A stretch of DNA of 39,816 nt from a virus. The notes beneath the pieces are model-generated. The model did not search any database and was not told the origin of the DNA. It saw only the letters and a program-made list of their open reading frames with translations. The translations under genes were made by a program, and so were the position numbers. Positions 2,376 to 38,716 of the stretch are shown here, in pieces; positions within the stretch are counted from its first letter, which is position 1; each line of letters opens with the position of its first letter. The stretch covers positions 1 through 39,816 of the IMG/VR virus record IMGVR_UViG_3300037248_000070. The stretch is one strand, 5' to 3'.

Positions 2376-3251
2376 TCATTCCTCCAGATCCAAGTCGCCA
2401 ATGTCGTAGGTTCGCGGGTAAGCATAGGTTGGAAGCGTCACATCCAGCTCGGCGCCATTCGCCACACCCGGCCACGACCCCAGCTTCTCGCACTCCACCC
2501 ACGTCTTCAGCAGCGATATGTAGTCTTCCCGTCCCTGCTGTATAACGTCCTCAGGTACGTTATACACTACTACGTCATGCGGAGGAGAGGATTCTATGAC
2601 GACTTCTTTGAGTACCGGTCTCACTCCCTTTATTTCGACGTAGCCGGCTTCGTAGAATGCCCACTGTATGTGATATGACAAGCGATGGGCCGCGGCGCCG
2701 AAAATAAATGGACGCACGTCGCGCGACGTTTTCAGGCCGATCAGATACGGTACCCCATGCAGGTGCGTGATCCAATCGACTCTACCGCGACAGGGCACCA
2801 TCCTGGCTAATCCCATCGGCGCCTCAACCCAGGTCTCCCACTGCATGGACACCTCGGGCTCGCCGGTCTGGAAGTATTTTGAGGCGATCGGATCGGCTCT
2901 CACCCGGCTCGCAATTGTCATGGCCGTTTCCAGATCATCTTCCGTGATGAACTGCTTACCGGGATTATCCAACATAAACCTGTCCCAGTACTGACCGCGG
3001 CGAGGGCACAAGCTGCCAGATTCGCCACGACGGTCCCACACCGCGAACTGACTGTAAAACCGCTCCGGCTCGAGTGTCGCCGTATGAGCCGCTACGCCCA
3101 ACCGTAATGCGTCTGTCTCTGGTAATCCCTGCTTCAGGAAGTGTTGGTAGTGCAGAGGCGATCTCTTGAGCTCCTTCAATCGGGTGATAGAGACCGCATT
3201 TATCTGGGCGTATTCCTCGTATGGGACGCGCGAGGTGATTGAGCCGTTCAT
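2376..3251 (-). CDS. PD-(D/E)XK exonuclease, RecE/DUF3799-like, with altered catalytic motif
   Basis: 291 aa from the ATG that overlaps the preceding micro-ORF stop as ATGA. The family signature is clear: NAVSITRLKELKRSPLHYQHF (residues 18-38), LRLGVAAHTATLEPERF with His56, RGRVDW with Asp159, LKTSRD with Lys174, and QWAFYEAG near 196. Such enzymes degrade one strand of dsDNA to prepare recombination substrates in the cytoplasm. Unusually, residue 172, just before LKT, is Gly (IGLKT) where the family has Asp (DLKT). GGC to GAC is a single transition. The protein may be catalytically weakened, may use another acid, or the base may be an error. The next gene is its likely DNA-binding partner. 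Confidence 0.85.
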   Translation of the reverse strand: MNGSITSRVPYEEYAQINAVSITRLKELKRSPLHYQHFLKQGLPETDALRLGVAAHTATLEPERFYSQFAVWDRRGESGSLCPRRGQYWDRFMLDNPGKQFITEDDLETAMTIASRVRADPIASKYFQTGEPEVSMQWETWVEAPMGLARMVPCRGRVDWITHLHGVPYLIGLKTSRDVRPFIFGAAAHRLSYHIQWAFYEAGYVEIKGVRPVLKEVVIESSPPHDVVVYNVPEDVIQQGREDYISLLKTWVECEKLGSWPGVANGAELDVTLPTYAYPRTYDIGDLDLEE

Positions 3252-3376
3252 GAGCATGCATCTATGAAATACTGAGCAGGCGATAGCTCTAATCGCATAT
3301 CTCCACGCATTACATAGCGATGATCGATGATAACGCAAGCCACGCCCATACCCTTGAAGTCTCTCCTCGCAATCAT
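3248..3376 (-). CDS. Micro-ORF between csrA and exonuclease, 42 aa
   Basis: This ORF fills the csrA-exonuclease gap exactly. Its ATG overlaps the csrA stop (ATGA) and its TGA overlaps the exonuclease ATG (ATGA). It begins MIARRDFKGMGVACVIIDHR and ends AQYFIDACS. No family is recognised. The two precise four-base overlaps are strong evidence for translation. The product could be functional, or serve mainly to couple translation of csrA to the nuclease, whose own ATG lacks a clear ribosome site. Confidence 0.65.
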   Translation of the reverse strand: MIARRDFKGMGVACVIIDHRYVMRGDMRLELSPAQYFIDACS

Positions 3377-3555
3377 GCCTTTCTTCCCAATTGTTTCCGC
3401 CCATCTACCTCAGCCCGATCAATCGACACCGCCAAAGGGGCATCAAATCCGAGCCGTACCTGCCCCAGGTAAGTGTTGCATACCATCACGCGCACCATAT
3501 ACTTGCCTACGCGGATGATAACCTCTTCTCCTTTGCATCTAGTTAGAATCAACAT
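3373..3555 (-). CDS. csrA: CsrA/RsmA-family carbon storage regulator homologue, 60 aa
   Basis: Starts MLILTRCKGEEVII, the hallmark CsrA N-terminus, and contains GQVRLGFDAP and AVSIDRAEV. Leu4, Arg6, Gly9 and Arg47 (equivalent to E. coli Arg44), key for RNA contact, are all present, and the length matches the family. CsrA dimers bind GGA in RNA loops, usually over ribosome sites, and repress or stabilise mRNAs. A phage copy could retune host mRNAs or time phage translation. The ATG lies 4 nt after the upstream stop. A longer in-frame extension upstream is rejected because the family start is at MLILTR. The same transcript carries a GGA-rich array upstream (3850-4131). Confidence 0.93.
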   Translation of the reverse strand: MLILTRCKGEEVIIRVGKYMVRVMVCNTYLGQVRLGFDAPLAVSIDRAEVDGRKQLGRKA

Positions 3556-18348: not shown

Positions 18349-19332
18349 ATGGCACTGATCAACCCTTCAGCCACGATGACGGAAATCGTGACCACGACCC
18401 TGCGCAACCGCACGGGTAAGTTGGCCGACAACGTCACCAAAAACAACGCGCTGCTCTATCGATTGCGGGCACGCGGCCGCGTCAAGCCGGTCTCCGGTGG
18501 TCGCACCATCGTCCAGGAATTGAACTACCAGGAGAATGGCACCTACAAGCGCTACTCCGGGTACGAAGTTCTCAACATCAGCCCATCCGACGTGTTCACG
18601 GGAGCCGAGTATAACTATGCGCAGGCCGCTGTCGCTGTCTCCATCTCGGGCCTCGAGATGCTGCAGAACTCCGGCGAAGAGGCCATCATCGACCTGTTGG
18701 AAGGGCGCATCGAGAACGCCGAGCAGACCCTAACCAACAACGTTGCCCTCGACATCTACTCGAATGGTACTGCTGATGGCGGACGGCAGATTGGTGGGTT
18801 GCAGCTGCTTGTCTCCGCGACACCTTCGTCGGGCATTGTCGGCGGTATAGACCCGTCAGTTTGGCAGTTCTGGAGGAATGTCTTCTTCAGCGGCCTGACC
18901 ACTGGCGGCGCGGCTGTCTCGACAGCCACGATTCAGACCTACATGAACCGCGTCTACCTGCAGTTGGTGCGCGGTGCCGATGCGCCGGATCTGATCGTGG
19001 CCGACAACAACTTCTACCGCTACTACCTGGAGAGCATGCAGGCGCTCCAGCGTGTCGGCGATGAGGATCTAGCTGAGCTCGGCTTCCAGACCTTGAAGTA
19101 CATGAACTGCGACGTGGTGCTGGACGGAGGCTTCGGTGGAGGCGCGCCGACGAACACGATGTTCTTTCTGAACACGAAGTACCTGTTCTTCAGGCCCCAC
19201 CAGGATCGAAACTTCGCGCCCCTCGGGGACGAGCGTTTTGCGGTCAACCAGGATGCGATGGTCAAGCTCGTCGGCTTCGCCGGCAACATGACCACCTCGA
19301 ATCGCTTCCTCCAGGGCCTGTTGGCCGCGTAA
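18349..19332 (+). CDS. Major capsid (coat) protein, 327 aa
   Basis: Begins MALINPSATMTEIVTTTLRN and has GGRTIVQELNYQENGTYKRY (about 50-69) and TNNVALDIYSNGTADGGRQI (about 127-146), a pattern common to phage coat proteins of HK97 fold encoded after scaffold. The C-terminal part (FFRPHQDRNFAPLGDERFAV) is also typical. Strong ribosome site (GGGAG) and codon regularity fit a highly expressed gene. Confidence 0.9.
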   Translation: MALINPSATMTEIVTTTLRNRTGKLADNVTKNNALLYRLRARGRVKPVSGGRTIVQELNYQENGTYKRYSGYEVLNISPSDVFTGAEYNYAQAAVAVSISGLEMLQNSGEEAIIDLLEGRIENAEQTLTNNVALDIYSNGTADGGRQIGGLQLLVSATPSSGIVGGIDPSVWQFWRNVFFSGLTTGGAAVSTATIQTYMNRVYLQLVRGADAPDLIVADNNFYRYYLESMQALQRVGDEDLAELGFQTLKYMNCDVVLDGGFGGGAPTNTMFFLNTKYLFFRPHQDRNFAPLGDERFAVNQDAMVKLVGFAGNMTTSNRFLQGLLAA

Positions 19333-19342
19333 GGAGAGACAT

Positions 19343-20140
19343 ATGGGAATCATCACACTCAAAGCAACCCCGGTCTCACCGTTCGCGTCACAGACCTACG
19401 TGCCTCCGGGGTTTCCGACCACGGCGACCAATGGCGTGGCCTATAACTGGGTAGCTCAGAACAACCAGCTGGGCGACTACGATATCGGGCGCGTCTGGGC
19501 GGATCTGCCCGGCCCCTATGCCGGCTTCAACACCGTCTTTCTGAAGCCTGAGTCGGCGGCGACCACTGCGGGAACCGCCACGAGCCCGGTTCTACCGGCC
19601 CCGATCTTCGCAGCGACCCCAGGTCAGATCATCACGGCGTACGAGCCGACGCTGGGATGGGGCGAGTTCATCGCGTTACGCAATCCGGTATCGAACGCGC
19701 TACCGGTGGGAACATTGGTGCAGTGGGACGCCACGTACTCGATCACGACGGTTCCGGCGAAGGGCACGAGCCAGAAGACGAGCGTGCCGGTGGCGGTGGC
19801 GGTGTCGAGCGCGGCGGTCGGTACGACCTCCCAGGCTCTCACGCAGGGTACCGTATTCCCGATCACCCCGCTCTATGACGGCTCCGGCTTGGCGTCCCAG
19901 GCCAACCAGATCACGGTCGCGTGGTACCAGATCAGCGGGCGCGCCTGGACGCTGAAGACGGCGGTGCAGATCACGCCGAACACGGCGGGGTACATCTCGG
20001 GCACTGCGGGTCGTATCTACGGTACGGCATCGGCCGGCGGTGCGATCCTGGGGAGTCGGCTCGCGACTTCCACGACTACCTCCACCCAGAGCTTGGTGCT
20101 GGTCTACTATCCCAATCACGGCCAGCTTGAGGGTACCTGA
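19343..20140 (+). CDS. Capsid-associated/decoration-type protein, 265 aa
   Basis: A Thr/Ala/Gly/Val-rich beta protein without helices or cysteines, directly after the coat gene with GGAGA before its ATG. N-terminus ITLKATPVSPFASQTYVPPG and regular beta repeats suggest a capsid-decorating or spike protein. It could be a target for the glycosyltransferase fusion encoded next, which is only inference from adjacency and Ser/Thr richness. Confidence 0.6.
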   Translation: MGIITLKATPVSPFASQTYVPPGFPTTATNGVAYNWVAQNNQLGDYDIGRVWADLPGPYAGFNTVFLKPESAATTAGTATSPVLPAPIFAATPGQIITAYEPTLGWGEFIALRNPVSNALPVGTLVQWDATYSITTVPAKGTSQKTSVPVAVAVSSAAVGTTSQALTQGTVFPITPLYDGSGLASQANQITVAWYQISGRAWTLKTAVQITPNTAGYISGTAGRIYGTASAGGAILGSRLATSTTTSTQSLVLVYYPNHGQLEGT

Positions 20141-20254: not shown

Positions 20255-22195
20255 ATGCTTCATGTGTGCTGTGTCAAATGGGGAAAGATGTACGGTCCTG
20301 AGTACGTCAACATTCTCTTTGACTGCGTGCGTAGGAATCTACCCGCAGGCTTCGCAGGCGACTTCACTTGCTTCACGGACGATCCCACCGGGTTGGAGGC
20401 TGGCATCAAAATCAAGCCTCTGCCCGAGGGGGTTGAGGGATGGTGGAACAAGCTCTATTTGTTCTCGCCGGAGGCATTCCCGGCGGGGGAGCGCGTGCTG
20501 TATTTCGATCTCGACACGGCCATTACCGGGCCGCTCGATGAGATTGCGCGCTACGATGGGCCATTCGCCATTCTGAGGGATTTCTACCGGCCGAATGGAC
20601 TTGGGTCTGGAGTCATGGCCTGGGAGTCAAGTAACTGCACACGCCTATTTTGGGAGAGATGGCAACAGCAGGGAAGGCCCCAGCCTGCAGGTGGGGATCA
20701 AGAGTGGGTTGAGCAATGCATTGCGCAAGGATGGAGCTGGCCGGTTGATCTATGGCAGGAGAGATTCCCTGGCAAATTCCGCAGCTACAAAGTTGACTGC
20801 CGCACGCAAATTCCACGTGGAACATCCGTAGTTTGCTTCCATGGATACCCAAAGCCTCACGAGGTTGTGTCGGGATGGGTGCCGGAAGTCTGGAAGGTCG
20901 GCGGCGGCTCAGCGATCGAGTGGGTCGTGCAGTCCAACGTGCCGGATGAGAAATTGCGCGCCAATGTGCTCTCGGCGATGGCGCGCGATTGCAAATGGGT
21001 CGAGCCTGGCAATGACGCGCGCACCGCGATCATCGTCGGCGGCGGCCCGAGTATCGCGACGAACCTGTTCTACATCCGCGGAATGCAGATGTCCGGAGCT
21101 AAGGTCTATGCGACCAACAAAACTTTCTCTTACCTCGTGGATAATGGCATCACTCCTGATGCTCACGTCATGCTGGATGCTCGGCAGGAGAATATTGAGT
21201 TTGTTCATGTGGGTGATGTGCCAAGATATTATGCTTCGCAGTGTCATCCTTCGGTACTTGCGGCGGCTGGCGACGAGCTGATCTGCTGGCACGCAGCCAT
21301 GTCCTCCTATCAGCCACTGCTGGACAAAGCCGGCGTCCCAAGCATCGGCGGCGGCACCACTGTCGGTATGAAGGCCATCGTCCTCGCCTACTTGCTCGGC
21401 CACCGCCACATCAACCTATTCGGCTTCGACTCGAGTTACGACGACGGCGCGCACCATCACGCATACCCTCAGTCTCTCAATGACGGCGAGAAAACGCTCG
21501 ACGTTCGCGTAGGTGGACGCTCCTTCCGCTGCGCACCCTGGATGGTCACCCAAGCAGAGGACTTCAAAGAGCATGTCCCGCTGCTCCTCGAAAACGGCTG
21601 CACTATTCGCGTGTTCGGGGACGGCCTCATTCCGCATATTGCTTCGCTTCTTAAGCCTCCGACCGTGGATGAGAGGGCTCAGCAAATCCTGGCGTGGCTC
21701 AAAGATATCCCACACCCGGAAGGAGCGGAGATCGGCGTGTTCACTGGCGCGCTATCCCAGCGGCTTCTGCTCAATCGCCCCGATCTGAAGCTGCTGATGG
21801 TGGACCCGTGGGCGGCTGGCAATGGAGAGGATGGCCTCGGCGAGTTCCATGGGTCACTCAGTCAGGACGAGCAGGATCACTACTACGAGGCCACTCAGGC
21901 GGCTGTGCAGTTTGCCGGCAAACGCGCGCTGATCCTCCGAGAGACGTCGCTTTCTGCCTCGGTGGACGTGCCGGATGGAGCGCTAGACTTCGTGTTTATC
22001 GATGCCGACCACTCTTACGAGTGCTGCTTAGAGGACATCAAGGCGTGGCTGCCTAAAATAAAACCGGGCGGATTCATTTCCGGTCACGACTACGAAAACC
22101 CCAATTATCCGACCTGGGGCGTCAAGCGCGCTGTCGAGGAAGTGTTTGGTACAGTCGATGTCGGCGCTGATTTCTGTTGGAGAAAATCACTATGA
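20255..22195 (+). CDS. Fusion: GT8-like glycosyltransferase + DUF115/MptE-like domain + class I methyltransferase, 646 aa
   Basis: Residues 1-215 are a GT-A glycosyltransferase: CVKWGKMYGPEYVN, CFTDDP, GWWNKLYLF, DLDT at 85-88 (metal-binding DxD), GDQEWV and CFHGYPKPHE. Residues about 255-465 match DUF115/MptE-like: TAIIVGGGPS, GGGTTVGMKAIVLAYLLGHR, LFGFDSSYDDGAHHHAYPQS, FGDGLIPHI. DUF115 proteins include flagellin-glycosylation factors. Residues about 475-640 are a SAM-dependent methyltransferase: AEIGVFTG, MVDPW, FIDADHSYE, KPGGFISGHDY. It probably builds or attaches a methylated sugar; the acceptor could be the neighbouring virion proteins or a host glycan. Translation may be governed by the structured leader upstream. 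Confidence 0.88.
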   Translation: MLHVCCVKWGKMYGPEYVNILFDCVRRNLPAGFAGDFTCFTDDPTGLEAGIKIKPLPEGVEGWWNKLYLFSPEAFPAGERVLYFDLDTAITGPLDEIARYDGPFAILRDFYRPNGLGSGVMAWESSNCTRLFWERWQQQGRPQPAGGDQEWVEQCIAQGWSWPVDLWQERFPGKFRSYKVDCRTQIPRGTSVVCFHGYPKPHEVVSGWVPEVWKVGGGSAIEWVVQSNVPDEKLRANVLSAMARDCKWVEPGNDARTAIIVGGGPSIATNLFYIRGMQMSGAKVYATNKTFSYLVDNGITPDAHVMLDARQENIEFVHVGDVPRYYASQCHPSVLAAAGDELICWHAAMSSYQPLLDKAGVPSIGGGTTVGMKAIVLAYLLGHRHINLFGFDSSYDDGAHHHAYPQSLNDGEKTLDVRVGGRSFRCAPWMVTQAEDFKEHVPLLLENGCTIRVFGDGLIPHIASLLKPPTVDERAQQILAWLKDIPHPEGAEIGVFTGALSQRLLLNRPDLKLLMVDPWAAGNGEDGLGEFHGSLSQDEQDHYYEATQAAVQFAGKRALILRETSLSASVDVPDGALDFVFIDADHSYECCLEDIKAWLPKIKPGGFISGHDYENPNYPTWGVKRAVEEVFGTVDVGADFCWRKSL

Positions 22196-22419
22196 TCGTA
22201 GAACTTACGGACGGTGTAACTAGATTTTTCAAGTCCGATCGGGAGAATATCTGGTACGTGGGAGAGGTGGAAGGTAACGGATGCCTGACGGTTTACCGGG
22301 AATGGGACGGAGGCGTTTGCTCAGGTAGGAATGCAGAGGCCAGCTTTGCTCCTGGAGTATGGCGACAGTGGTTTGACGAGAAAAACAATGCTCCAGTCTT
22401 GAAAGAGAGGTCAGCATGA
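22192..22419 (+). CDS. Hypothetical protein, 75 aa
   Basis: ATG overlaps the fusion gene stop (ATGA). A compact beta-rich protein with IWYVGEVEGNGCLTVYREWD and an aromatic tail (GVWRQWFDEKNN). No family is recognised. It lies between the glycosyltransferase fusion and a virion gene and is coupled to both. Confidence 0.6.
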   Translation: MIVELTDGVTRFFKSDRENIWYVGEVEGNGCLTVYREWDGGVCSGRNAEASFAPGVWRQWFDEKNNAPVLKERSA

Positions 22420-23267
22420 GTATCGATCTGCCTCAGTTCGCGCCGCCGCGCACGCTCGAAAGCCCGAAACAGGACTTCAGCAAGGTGCTGTACGGCCTCT
22501 CCGGTGAAGGCGGAGCAGGCCTCGATGGCGAGCTGATCGTTGAGTTCTACATCAAGCCGTACCCGATGGAGTACCTCACGGAAAGCATGGGGTTCCCCAT
22601 ATTCCAGGACCGCATTTGGGTGCGCATCGTGGCGCCGGGCAATAGCAAAACTGTCTGGGATACGCTGGCCTCCGGCATCGAATACGACACCGCGATCGAT
22701 CCAGACTCCGGCGAGTACCACACTACTTGGGAAGTGCTACAGCAGTGCGCCAACGGCGATCAGCCCGATACGGCCAAGTACCCGAAGGCCTGGGCGCGGT
22801 TCATGCGCCGCGGCGAGAAGGCCGACGATGGCTGGCCGATCGAGGAATGGGGCGTCGTTACTCGCTCCTACGCCGAGTCACTCAAGCTGCTCAGCATCCC
22901 AACTGTCGAGGCGCTGGCGGCTCTCTCGGATGCCAATGCGGCCACCATCATGGGAGGGCGAAAATACCGAGACCTGGCAAAGGCCGCGGTCGATGAGCGC
23001 GCCCGCAATCGCATCGTCGCGAGCGAGCAGGCCAAGGCATCTCGTGCCGAGGAGAAGGTCAATCTCCAGGACGAGAAGATCAAGCAGCTCGAGGCGACTA
23101 TAGCCAACATGCAGACTCAGTTTGCGCAGGGCATGCGCGCTCAGGCTCCGGTCATTCAGCAGCAAGGCGCGCCACCTCCCGCGCCGGCCCTGAAGACTGC
23201 ATCCGTGAAGACCTCGAAGCGCACCCGTGAGATCGTGGATGCCGGGGAGCATTCGGAGAATGCCTGA
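22416..23267 (+). CDS. Putative virion protein with coiled coil, 283 aa
   Basis: A folded N-terminal 200 residues (VEFYIKPYPMEYLTESMGFP; AWARFMRRGEKADDGWPIEE) is followed by a coiled coil (about 200-240: RAEEKVNLQDEKIKQLEATI) and a basic Pro-rich end. Proteins of this kind are encoded between coat and adaptor in short-tailed phages. Exact role unknown. ATGA-type overlap with the upstream gene. Confidence 0.65.
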   Translation: MSIDLPQFAPPRTLESPKQDFSKVLYGLSGEGGAGLDGELIVEFYIKPYPMEYLTESMGFPIFQDRIWVRIVAPGNSKTVWDTLASGIEYDTAIDPDSGEYHTTWEVLQQCANGDQPDTAKYPKAWARFMRRGEKADDGWPIEEWGVVTRSYAESLKLLSIPTVEALAALSDANAATIMGGRKYRDLAKAAVDERARNRIVASEQAKASRAEEKVNLQDEKIKQLEATIANMQTQFAQGMRAQAPVIQQQGAPPPAPALKTASVKTSKRTREIVDAGEHSENA

Positions 23268-24241
23268 TGTCACTCCTGACCATCGTCCAGCAGGCCTTCG
23301 GTGAGATAGGGCTCGCTCCGCCGGCGACTGTCGCCGGTAACACCGACTCGAATGTCATCAAGGCGTTCGCGCTCGCCAATCGCGCTGGCTTCGAGTTAAG
23401 AGATGCCACCAAGGCGGCGGATCACTGGCCGACTCTGCGCAAACAGTTTCTATTCGACCTGATCGGCATTGGCCCGTTCACGGGCACGTTCACTGCCAAC
23501 TCTCCGGTCATCACGAATATCACCGGCACGAATCTGGCCGGCGTTCAGGCCGGGTGGCAGGTGTCCTCGACGTTCGCGCTCAATGACTCCATGGTCGTTT
23601 CAGTCAATGCCGGCGCGGGCACTGTGACGATGTCCCAGAACTCCACTGTGCCCACTATCAGCGTCACGGGTGTCGATTCGTCGCTCGCGTTCGGGCAGGA
23701 GTCGTACCCTCAACCCTCTGACCTCAACTACTTCATCCCGCAAACGGGGTGGGATCGCAACTTCCGCTGGCAGCTCCTCGGGCCGGTCAATGCTCAGGAG
23801 TGGCAGGTACTCAAGTCCGGCATCAGTCCGGTAGGGCCAAGACTGAGATACCGGCTCACCGACGGACAGATCTTGATCAACCCGGCGCCCTACGTGCCGA
23901 CCGGCCAAGCCAGCCCCATATCGGACCAGCTTGTATTCGAGTACGCGTCCATTAACTGGGTGGCGGTCGCCGCGTCTCCTGCAGTCGCTGTCCAGTCGGC
24001 ATTTGTGCTCGATACGGATGTTTCGGTGCTACCCGAGGATCTCATTACGCTATCGCTCAAGTGGCGCGTGCTCAAGGCGCTCGGCATGGCGTACGCCGAT
24101 GAGTGGCAGGAGTATGACGACAAGCTAGCGACGGTCACCGGTCGCACGGTTATGGGCCGCAATCTGCCGCTCAATGCTCGCGCCTCGGGCATCAGGCTGC
24201 TGAACTCCCAGAACGTGCCCGACACGGGGTTTGGGTCATGA
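23267..24241 (+). CDS. Head-to-tail adaptor (P22 gp4-like), 324 aa
   Basis: The N-terminus TIVQQAFGEIGLAPPATVAG is the usual start of gp4-like head-completion proteins. Residues 70-145 form a beta insert, and the C-terminal third is helical (ITLSLKWRVLKALGMAYADE; MGRNLPLNARASG). It would bind under the portal and close the channel. The position before the gp10-like gene agrees. Confidence 0.75.
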   Translation: MSLLTIVQQAFGEIGLAPPATVAGNTDSNVIKAFALANRAGFELRDATKAADHWPTLRKQFLFDLIGIGPFTGTFTANSPVITNITGTNLAGVQAGWQVSSTFALNDSMVVSVNAGAGTVTMSQNSTVPTISVTGVDSSLAFGQESYPQPSDLNYFIPQTGWDRNFRWQLLGPVNAQEWQVLKSGISPVGPRLRYRLTDGQILINPAPYVPTGQASPISDQLVFEYASINWVAVAASPAVAVQSAFVLDTDVSVLPEDLITLSLKWRVLKALGMAYADEWQEYDDKLATVTGRTVMGRNLPLNARASGIRLLNSQNVPDTGFGS

Positions 24242-26533: not shown

Positions 26534-26783
26534 CGGCATCCCCGGCGCCAGCTATCCTGTCATGGGATCGGCGCCGATCACGAACATGCAGCCTCGGTAC
26601 TCGGTACCGGGCGAGGCGCAACTGCGGCCGGGTGTCGGCCAGCCTCCTCGAGGAGGATCTCTACCGCCTCTCAACCAGGGACAGCAGCCGCCCATTGGGA
26701 ATAGGCCGCAGATGCTCGCCAATGCCCTCGGGCAAATGGGTGGCGGCATTGGCTCTCCTGGCAATCAGAGGGCGGTGATGTAA
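26451..26783 (+). CDS. Pro/Gly-rich virion-associated protein, 110 aa
   Basis: Starts inside the acetyltransferase gene in another frame; GGGGCG precedes the ATG. The sequence is nearly all Pro, Gly, Gln, Asn and Ala (VKPPAYSPPAGTASG; PPLNQGQQPPIG). Probably disordered; similar small ORFs lie beside ejection proteins here. An ATG 15 nt upstream is an alternative start. Confidence 0.55.
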   Translation: MGANNFRPATNGGNVKPPAYSPPAGTASGIPGASYPVMGSAPITNMQPRYSVPGEAQLRPGVGQPPRGGSLPPLNQGQQPPIGNRPQMLANALGQMGGGIGSPGNQRAVM

Positions 26784-27988
26784 TGGGCGGCAAGTCGGCG
26801 CCGAGCGCGCCGGATCCGTATCAGTCGGCGCAAGCTCAATACCAATACGGCACTCAGGCGGCTAACTACAATGCGGCGCTGGGAGATGTGAATCAGGTCA
26901 CGCCGTTCGGCTCGACTACCTGGAGCGTCAACCCTTCCGGTATCGGCGCTACTCCCTACGGAGGAAGTGCCGGCACCCCGGCCCTGGCGCCATCGCCCTA
27001 TCAAGTCCCACCGTCTGGCATCGGGGGAGAGCTTAGGGGTGTCCAAGGGTATGGAGGAGCGCCGCCCGGGTATGGGTCTGGTACGGTACCGACAGGTAAT
27101 TTCAACGCAAACGACTCGATCGCTCCGCAGTACACCGAAACACAGAGCCTGTCTCCGGTCGAGCAGCAGATGCTATCCCGGAGTCAGGGTCTCGCCTTGC
27201 AGTCACAAGGGCTAGGTCAGGAGGCGGGCTCGAACGTCGGGCAAGTGTTGAATGGATATCAGATGCCCACCGAGGGGCAGAACGGGTTGTTTGGCGAGCA
27301 GGCCATGCAGGCGGCTTACGGCACTGAGACGGCTGCGATGGATCCGTATTGGAGCCAGCAGCAGGAGCAGCTCGACGCATCACTGCGCAACTCGGGCGCC
27401 ACCCCAGGGACGCCCGCTTATGCCAACGCCATGCAGGAGTTCCAGGCGAATCGCTCCAATGCATACTCCCAGGCGGAAAACCAAGCATTCGGACAGGGTC
27501 TGTCCGCGCAGGGGCAAGAGATCAGCGATGTGAATCAGGCCCAGGGTGGCCCGATTGCCAACTTCCTATCTCTCGTTGGAAACAATCCGGCGGGTGCGGC
27601 ATCAGTGGGCAGCGCTGGCGGGGGCGGGGGGAGTGGCGGCGGGAGCGTGTCAGCTCCAAACATCATGCAGGCGTTCGAGAACCAGTATCAGGGGCAGCTC
27701 GCGAACTACAACGCCAATGTGTCGAGCTCGAATTCCGATATTGGAGCCTTGGGGACATTGGCCGCGGCATTCATCGCAGCCTCCGACAAGCGTCTCAAGA
27801 CGGACATAGAGCCCATCGGCGCCAAAACATCGCGTGGCAACTCCCTGTACACCTATCGATACAACTTCCAAGGCAAGGACGAGCCTAAGCAGGTTGGCGT
27901 GATGGCCCAGGAAGCCGAGAAAGTTACACCCGATGCGGTCCTGAAGGACCAGCACGGCATCCGCTACGTCAACTACGCGAGGGCATGA
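26783..27988 (+). CDS. Virion protein with C-terminal S74-type chaperone domain, 401 aa
   Basis: The N-terminal 335 residues are Gln/Gly/Ala/Tyr-rich. The C-terminus has SDKRLKTDIEPIG, LYTYRYNFQG, VGVMAQEAEKVTP and a terminal GIRYVNYARA, the short form of the Peptidase_S74 intramolecular chaperone, which trimerises and may cleave itself off at the Ser of SDKRLK. It is probably a fibre-like or ejected virion protein. The domain ends right after the conserved VNY, without the extra helices of longer versions. Upstream TAA overlaps the ATG. Confidence 0.8.
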   Translation: MGGKSAPSAPDPYQSAQAQYQYGTQAANYNAALGDVNQVTPFGSTTWSVNPSGIGATPYGGSAGTPALAPSPYQVPPSGIGGELRGVQGYGGAPPGYGSGTVPTGNFNANDSIAPQYTETQSLSPVEQQMLSRSQGLALQSQGLGQEAGSNVGQVLNGYQMPTEGQNGLFGEQAMQAAYGTETAAMDPYWSQQQEQLDASLRNSGATPGTPAYANAMQEFQANRSNAYSQAENQAFGQGLSAQGQEISDVNQAQGGPIANFLSLVGNNPAGAASVGSAGGGGGSGGGSVSAPNIMQAFENQYQGQLANYNANVSSSNSDIGALGTLAAAFIAASDKRLKTDIEPIGAKTSRGNSLYTYRYNFQGKDEPKQVGVMAQEAEKVTPDAVLKDQHGIRYVNYARA

Positions 27989-38218: not shown

Positions 38219-38716
38219 CTAAGACTCGCTCAATGGTGACCATCTGACGAGTTGCGTGTCATAGCCGAGCATTAGCGGATGCAGCGGATCGCCAGACTTT
38301 GTTAGGCCGAATACATGTACCGGCTTGCCGGATGCCAATAGCACCCGCGTCAGCGCACCCAGCCGGGGGCGCAAAGCAAGCGGCAGCTTTGAGCGATTGC
38401 CCCAGCAGGGCACCAACAAGTCAGCATCAGCTACAATTTGCCGAATGTGCTGCTCGTTCTCAGGGCCTACGGGATCAGCCGCCCTCGACAGGGCGCGCAC
38501 GTCGGTCGCGCGAAAGGCAAACGGATTACCAGCGATGTACTTGCGCGCGCTCATGCGGAAGGCAAATCCGCGCCACTTCATTGTGGTTTGATCCTCGACT
38601 TCCGCGCCAGCCGTCGAGGGATTAACACCGAAGTAGGCCACGACGATACCGTGCTCGGCCAGCACTCGCTCCAAGCGATAGCGGTACTGGCCACACATGC
38701 TTATGATCGCGCTCAT
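38219..38716 (-). CDS. DUF1643 family protein, 165 aa
   Basis: The signature is clear: YRYRLERVLAEHGIVVAYFG then NPSTAGAEVEDQTT, NPFAFRATDVRALSRAADPV with GPENE, CWGNRSK, and GLTKSGDPLHPLML. DUF1643 is a conserved single-domain family of unknown biochemical function in bacteria and phages. Full length, no broken motif. ATG overlaps the previous stop (ATGA). It is within the leftward operon with the methyltransferase and may belong to DNA modification or nucleotide metabolism; that is speculative. Confidence 0.85.
   Translation of the reverse strand: MSAIISMCGQYRYRLERVLAEHGIVVAYFGVNPSTAGAEVEDQTTMKWRGFAFRMSARKYIAGNPFAFRATDVRALSRAADPVGPENEQHIRQIVADADLLVPCWGNRSKLPLALRPRLGALTRVLLASGKPVHVFGLTKSGDPLHPLMLGYDTQLVRWSPLSES

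What the first reader, a model, noticed from the sequence alone, without database searches (positions are those of the whole stretch)
20255..22195. Three-enzyme fusion (glycosyltransferase, DUF115, methyltransferase) inside the capsid operon
One 646-aa ORF joins a GT8-like domain with DLDT, a DUF115/MptE-like domain and a complete class I methyltransferase. It is placed between coat/decoration genes and the head-completion genes. DUF115 relatives glycosylate flagellin. The arrangement suggests a self-contained machine that adds a sugar and methylates it, perhaps on the phage's own Ser/Thr-rich virion protein (19343-20140) or on host surface glycan to block superinfection. I know of no described system with this order of domains.
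Basis: partly seen in the sequence, partly recalled or inferred. Interest (0 to 1): 0.78.

Follow-up and report, generated by a model that had tools for sequence, protein, structure and literature searches.

The report
Phage sugar-enzyme fusion paired with coat protein
An uncultured phage carries one fused enzyme (two sugar-transferase-like domains plus a methyltransferase) that is inherited together with the phage's own capsid-decorating protein, which in carriers has a matching threonine/serine-rich loop, so phages of this group probably coat their own shells with a methylated sugar.

Summary
A 646-aa ORF (20255-22195) joins a GT8-like glycosyltransferase, a DUF115/Maf-like domain and a Methyltransf_24 domain. 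Relatives keep this order down to about 42-50% identity, under purifying selection. The gene is an optional insertion between the decoration protein (dec265, 19343-20140; cement-protein fold) and the next head gene of Mx8-like podoviruses. Cultured relatives such as Mx8 lack it.

The new evidence concerns the target. Across 57 loci, presence of the enzyme changes 9 times on the capsid-protein tree, 9 on that of the downstream neighbour and 8 on that of the adaptor, but only 3 on the decoration-protein tree. In 72 carriers, DUF115 distances track the decoration protein far better than the capsid protein. Decoration proteins of carriers have a Thr/Ser-rich C-terminal loop (here ATSTTTSTQS). A motif drawn from the first carriers is in 36 of 48 carriers found later by enzyme search, and in 1 of 41 non-carriers.

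Best reading: a mobile, self-contained O-glycosylation module that modifies the phage's own decoration protein. The third domain is exchangeable (Methyltransf_24 or FkbM). Virion glycosylation is known from mycobacteriophages; the architecture, target class and enzyme-acceptor co-inheritance appear undescribed. The chemistry is untested.

The parts
20255..22195 (+). 646-aa three-domain enzyme GT8-like / DUF115 (Maf-like) / Methyltransf_24
20255..20902 (+). GT8-like glycosyltransferase domain (residues 1-216): D85-L-D87, G147-D-Q149, H196-G197 invariant in relatives
20939..21655 (+). DUF115/PF01973 domain (about residues 229-467), closest solved relative Maf glycosyltransferase 5mu5; the one domain present in every cassette found
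21665..22192 (+). class I methyltransferase domain (Methyltransf_24; residues 471-646), replaced by FkbM methyltransferase in L011, L025, L109, L113, L213, L238, L277
19343..20140 (+). 265-aa capsid decoration (cement) protein, the proposed acceptor; homologue of Mx8 p49
20066..20092 (+). codons 242-250 of the decoration protein, TSTTTSTQS loop: proposed O-glycosylation acceptor
18349..19332 (+). major capsid protein (phrog_9953; Mx8 p48 family)
22416..23267 (+). 283-aa head gene downstream of the cassette (Mx8 p50 homologue), used as the control neighbour
23267..24241 (+). 324-aa adaptor/tail-tube-like protein (SU10_adaptor weak; Mx8 p51 homologue)

Best explanation
The gene encodes a self-contained enzyme that O-glycosylates the phage's own capsid decoration protein and caps the sugar by methylation. 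Proposed order of events: (1) the decoration protein is made in the infected cell from the gene just upstream (inferred); (2) the DUF115/Maf-like domain attaches the first sugar, perhaps a nonulosonic-acid-like one from a CMP donor as in flagellin Maf enzymes, to Thr/Ser in the C-terminal loop (residues 242-250) (inferred); (3) the GT8-like domain adds a further hexose from an NDP-sugar (inferred from intact catalytic motifs; the order of 2 and 3 could be reversed); (4) the Methyltransf_24 domain, or FkbM in relatives, O-methylates the sugar (inferred); (5) the decorated protein assembles on the capsid, giving a glycan-coated virion (inferred). Decoration protein and enzyme are exchanged between phages as one module (shown by gene trees). 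The specific sugar and the benefit (stability, hiding from host defences or receptors, adhesion to particles) are unknown.
For: Label changes for enzyme presence, 57 loci: capsid protein 9, decoration protein 3, downstream p283 9, adaptor 8 (shuffles about 18, minimum 12). Bootstraps at equal length with the decoration C-terminus left out: 6-11, 2-6, 7-10, 7-10. Among 72 carriers, DUF115 distances correlate 0.62 with the decoration protein against 0.43 p283, 0.41 adaptor, 0.17 capsid; partial correlation 0.52 with permutation maximum 0.25. In an unbiased scan of the whole decoration protein, the window with the largest carrier excess of Ser/Thr is this loop (4.4 against 1.8 per 12 columns); it remains significant with the capsid tree (t=6.5) and the decoration tree (t=3.7) as phylogenetic control. 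Motif in 36/48 carriers found later through the enzyme, 1/41 non-carriers. The decoration fold matches capsid cement proteins of Pam3, XM1, Sf11 and TW1. DUF115 is closest to Maf 5mu5 (1.7e-11) and NCBIfam PseD flagellin modification (9 of 13 members). Sugar methyltransferase MeT1 and the O-methyltransferases NovP and SafC are among the fold matches of the third domain. In 29 of 91 loci the decoration stop and the enzyme start overlap by one base or abut.
Against: No biochemical or mass-spectrometry evidence. Decoration protein and enzyme are neighbours, so part of the joint inheritance could be physical linkage; the downstream neighbour p283, usually about as close, does not show it as strongly. 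Nearly all carrier decoration proteins form one clade, so the loop signal rests on few independent origins. L067 and L084 (DUF115 carriers outside the clade) fit only weakly. A group with a different short coat-adjacent protein (L266-L276) carries the enzyme without a detectable dec homologue. PF01973 also contains MptE pterin kinases, and the fold also matches one (8sd5).
Confidence: 0.66

Rival explanations
1. The enzyme glycosylates and methylates another virion protein (capsid protein, adaptor or tail fibre), and the decoration protein merely hitch-hikes as the upstream neighbour.
For: The gene sits in the head operon; mycobacteriophage glycans are on capsid and tail-tube C-termini (PMC12619734).
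Against: Capsid protein, p283 and adaptor trees do not follow the enzyme. The carrier-specific Ser/Thr loop is in the decoration protein; other virion proteins were not scanned for such a signature.
Confidence: 0.14
2. It modifies a host surface glycan or flagellin during infection or lysogeny, giving superinfection exclusion or seroconversion.
For: Phage glycosyltransferases often do this; Maf relatives act on flagellin (PMC11339370).
Against: It lies in the late head operon, often abutting the decoration gene; no flippase or membrane partner was seen among the window proteins scanned; enzyme presence follows the decoration protein.
Confidence: 0.09
3. It hypermodifies phage DNA (sugar plus methyl on bases).
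For: PHROGs labels the third domain's family 'DNA methyltransferase' (phrog_2675); phages glucosylate DNA.
Against: The domain is Methyltransf_24 or FkbM, with small-molecule and sugar O-methyltransferases among its fold matches; no hydroxymethyl-pyrimidine enzymes among the window proteins scanned; DNA modification predicts no link to a decoration protein.
Confidence: 0.04
4. DUF115 acts as an MptE-like pterin pyrophosphokinase or other non-glycosyl enzyme.
For: The Pfam name is MptE-like and the fold search also returns HPPK 8sd5.
Against: By sequence the profile reaches Maf 5mu5 and not the kinase; fusion to GT8 and sugar-type methyltransferases; no pterin context.
Confidence: 0.05

Closest known systems
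Maf / PseD flagellin glycosyltransferases (PF01973; structure 5mu5)
   Same: DUF115 core by sequence and fold; cytoplasmic protein O-glycosylation of Ser/Thr near small apolar residues (PMC11339370), much like the TVTSTTSTVV loop
   Different: Maf N- and C-terminal domains are absent; here GT8 and methyltransferase domains flank DUF115; phage capsid gene context; NCBIfam PseD cut-off far from met
Mycobacteriophage virion glycosylation (Freeman et al. 2023, cited in PMC12619734)
   Same: Phage-encoded glycosyltransferases that put glycans on virion proteins
   Different: There the targets are capsid and tail-tube C-termini; here a decoration protein and a single fused GT8-DUF115-methyltransferase inherited with it
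Myxococcus phage Mx8 structural module (p45-p54)
   Same: Same gene order: portal, scaffold-like, capsid protein, decoration protein, p50, p51
   Different: Mx8 and other cultured relatives have no enzyme between p49 and p50, and Mx8 p49 has the non-carrier loop
uncultured Caudovirales 'MptE-like' proteins A0A6J5PVH5, A0A6J7XC21
   Same: Similar size (685-700 aa) and structure, 25-39% identity
   Different: Annotated only as MptE-like, no function assigned

Membership tests
Maf/PseD flagellin glycosyltransferase | PF01973 (Maf_flag10) domain | tested here: met
   76.3 bits, cut-off 34.6; 5mu5 1.7e-11
Maf/PseD flagellin glycosyltransferase | full-length Maf/PseD architecture | tested here: not met
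   21.6 bits against cut-off 670; only residues 253-403 match
Maf/PseD flagellin glycosyltransferase | transfers nonulosonic acid to protein Ser/Thr | not testable with these tools
   no assay
GT8 | DxD, DQ and C-terminal HxxG-type motifs | tested here: met
   D85, D87, G147-D148-Q149, H196, G197 invariant in 13 relatives; assignment of the motifs to GT8 from general knowledge
GT8 | match to a curated GT8 profile | tested here: inconclusive
   no Pfam GT8 match; glycogenin by profile (1e-3) and fold; PHROG glycosyltransferase
Methyltransf_24 (PF13578) | score above curated cut-off | tested here: met
   56.4 bits, cut-off 26.3; 10 of 13 relatives match
MptE pterin diphosphokinase | closest by sequence to solved MptE/HPPK | tested here: not met
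   8sd5 found by fold only, not by profile
Phage virion glycosylation system | glycan on a virion protein | not testable with these tools
   needs mass spectrometry
Phage virion glycosylation system | enzyme encoded with and linked to virion genes | tested here: met
Mx8-like podovirus structural module | homologous capsid protein, decoration protein, p50 and p51 in order | tested here: met

The most novel reading that the evidence does not exclude
A phage-encoded Maf-type O-glycosylation module specific for capsid decoration proteins. The acceptor protein and a fused first-sugar / second-sugar / methyl-cap enzyme are swapped between phages as one cassette, and exchange of the outer domains (GT8 or another N-terminal part; Methyltransf_24, FkbM, acyltransferase) diversifies the glycan coat of the virion, much as O-antigen loci diversify bacterial surfaces.
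Probability: 0.45. Interest if true: 0.8.

Novelty: new variant of a known kind. Interest (0 to 1): 0.64.

Why it matters
If true, many uncultured podoviruses wear a genetically encoded, exchangeable sugar coat. The work gives an enzyme-acceptor pair with a defined loop that can be tested by co-expressing two genes. It would extend virion glycosylation beyond mycobacteriophages, give DUF115 proteins in phages a function in place of the misleading 'MptE-like' label, and supply a compact one-polypeptide O-glycosylation tool.

Tried and rejected
First idea that the decoration protein occurs only with the enzyme: rejected, because iterative profiles found it in most relatives with or without the enzyme. 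The capsid-tree regression (t=6.5) overstates independence, because carrier decoration proteins are nearly one clade; the decoration-tree value (t=3.7) is the fairer one. A second Ser/Thr-rich stretch near residue 71 of dec265 is an insertion peculiar to the window's closest relatives and was not taken as the acceptor. Sequence search of the methyltransferase domain alone against solved structures gave nothing. DNA hypermodification and MptE kinase roles were considered and put low. No phage record in the annotated collection covers the whole fusion. The key paper on mycobacteriophage virion glycosylation is not held and was used only through a citing paper. Larger slots without the enzyme (L066, L068, L071, L096) hold other genes, such as small structural-looking proteins and a pectate-lyase-like ORF, with no transferase recognised by eye in the translations.

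Full report
Observation. The ORF at 20255-22195 is real and 646 aa long. Pfam finds DUF115/MptE-like at residues 255-397 and Methyltransf_24 at 492-613, both well above cut-off; PHROGs gives a glycosyltransferase at 7-214. A predicted structure (mean pLDDT 82, pTM 0.57) has confident domains with low-confidence stretches between and within them. Its best PDB matches are the Maf glycosyltransferase 5mu5, GT8/GT6-type galactosyltransferases and glycogenin, and, for the third domain, class I methyltransferases including the sugar methyltransferase MeT1 and the O-methyltransferases NovP and SafC. Profile search against solved structures puts Maf 5mu5 first (1.7e-11), then a galactosyltransferase and glycogenins. 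NCBIfam finds only the flagellin-modification protein PseD in the DUF115 part (9 of 13 relatives) and FkbM in two.

It is not a chance or assembly fusion. Independent contigs carry it in one frame at 62-100% identity, and more distant ones keep the full order down to about 42-50%. dN/dS is about 0.05-0.19 in each domain where it could be computed.

Surroundings. The window is an IMG/VR virus record of 39,816 bases. Its structural module matches Myxococcus phage Mx8 in gene order: terminase, portal, scaffold-like protein, capsid protein (Mx8 p48), decoration protein (p49), 283-aa protein (p50), 324-aa tail/adaptor protein (p51), then p52- and p53-like genes. Cultured relatives (Mx8, Bradyrhizobium ppBjS10J-1, Stenotrophomonas BUCT555 and others) have no enzyme at this place. 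The enzyme is therefore an accessory gene inserted between p49 and p50 orthologues. The 265-aa protein adopts the fold of capsid decoration/cement proteins (Pam3, XM1, Sf11, TW1; Foldseek probability 1.00, best E 2.8e-4, from a model of moderate confidence).

The slot is variable. In 64 non-redundant loci with a complete slot and a decoration gene, 23 carry a DUF115 gene and 41 do not. DUF115 is the constant part. The third domain is Methyltransf_24 in many, FkbM in others (L011, L025, L109, L113; confirmed by Pfam for L011 and L025), or FkbM as a separate next gene (L061). The N-terminal part is GT8-like, or another, unassigned N-terminal region (L074, L077, L081, L092, L124), sometimes next to a hexapeptide acyltransferase (L077).

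Target. I first suspected simple co-occurrence of enzyme and decoration protein, and rejected it: the decoration family is present with or without the enzyme. The informative signal is in the trees. Enzyme presence changes 9, 3, 9 and 8 times on the trees of capsid protein, decoration protein, p283 and adaptor (57 loci; shuffles about 18). With equal numbers of resampled sites, and the decoration C-terminus left out, the ranges are 6-11, 2-6, 7-10 and 7-10. Thus the decoration protein upstream is inherited with the enzyme, while the downstream neighbour is not. Concrete cases: L080 (carrier) and L086 (non-carrier) share 76% of the capsid protein but only 44% of the decoration protein, while L080 and L072 (both carriers) share 57% and 62%. 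Within 72 carriers, DUF115 distances follow the decoration protein (0.62) more than p283 (0.43), adaptor (0.41) or capsid (0.17), and the partial correlation with the decoration protein is 0.52 (permutation maximum 0.25). Capsid and decoration distances are nearly unrelated (0.14), whereas capsid and p283 (0.66) or adaptor (0.77) agree.

Acceptor site. Scanning the whole decoration alignment for Ser/Thr excess in carriers, the strongest window is the C-terminal loop before the last strand (residues about 242-255; 4.4 against 1.8 per 12 columns). In the window it reads ATSTTTSTQSLVLVYY; in typical carriers ANLTTVTSTTSTVVV; in non-carriers GTPAAG, AALAGAAS and the like. The predicted structure shows residues 241-250 as coil. 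The effect survives phylogenetic regression on the capsid tree (t=6.5) and on the more stringent decoration tree (t=3.7). A motif drawn from the first set is found in 36 of 48 further carriers that were collected by the enzyme alone, against 1 of 41 non-carriers (these sequences are related, so the nominal p-value of 1e-13 is not to be taken literally). Known Maf glycosites lie among small apolar residues such as Val and Thr (PMC11339370), which resembles this loop.

Mechanism. Shown: module architecture, purifying selection, conservation of motifs, co-inheritance, and the loop signature. Inferred: DUF115 adds the first sugar to the loop, GT8 extends it, the methyltransferase caps it. The donor sugars, the order of transfer and the benefit to the phage are open.

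Novelty. Phage virion glycosylation is known from mycobacteriophages (Freeman et al. 2023, through PMC12619734). Searches for DUF115 or MptE-like with phage, and for glycosylated decoration proteins, found no description of this system; most subscription papers are not in the library. Similar proteins exist in UniProt as 'MptE-like'. In the bacterial and archaeal genome collection the GT8-DUF115 arrangement was found in only two contigs (a Rhodopila MAG and a gammaproteobacterial MAG), both next to the same phage genes, so it belongs to phages. I rate it a new variant of a known kind.

Caveats. No experiment; neighbouring genes can be co-transferred; nearly all carrier decoration proteins are one clade, so independent origins are few; a subgroup (L266-L276) has the enzyme next to a different small coat-adjacent protein.

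Noticed in passing
L266-L276 and L061, between capsid gene and enzyme: A different, about 95-100 aa Ser/Thr-rich protein stands where the decoration protein is in other carriers, together with GT8-DUF115 and often a separate FkbM gene; it may be a second acceptor family.
   Followed up: partly
L077:11624-12804 and L081:11528-12831: The same slot holds a hexapeptide acyltransferase and a hydrolase-like gene before a different N-terminal part fused to DUF115, suggesting acylated glycans.
   Followed up: no
L254:5188-8190: A 1000-aa protein with an extra N-terminal region, GT8 and two DUF115 domains in tandem.
   Followed up: no
L281:6001-7232 and L283:6001-7208 (Shinella genomes): GT8-like and Methyltransf_24 genes overlap as neighbours without DUF115.
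   Followed up: no
window 2376-3404 (-): RecE/exonuclease VIII-like PD-(D/E)XK nuclease.
   Followed up: no
window 26783-27988: Structural protein that ends in a Peptidase_S74 intramolecular chaperone.
   Followed up: no
window 38219-38716 (-): DUF1643 protein at the right end of the window.
   Followed up: no
L096:8174-9988 and L020:12662-14494: Pectate-lyase-like ORFs inserted beside the decoration and p283 genes of enzyme-less relatives (reading of the translation only).
   Followed up: no
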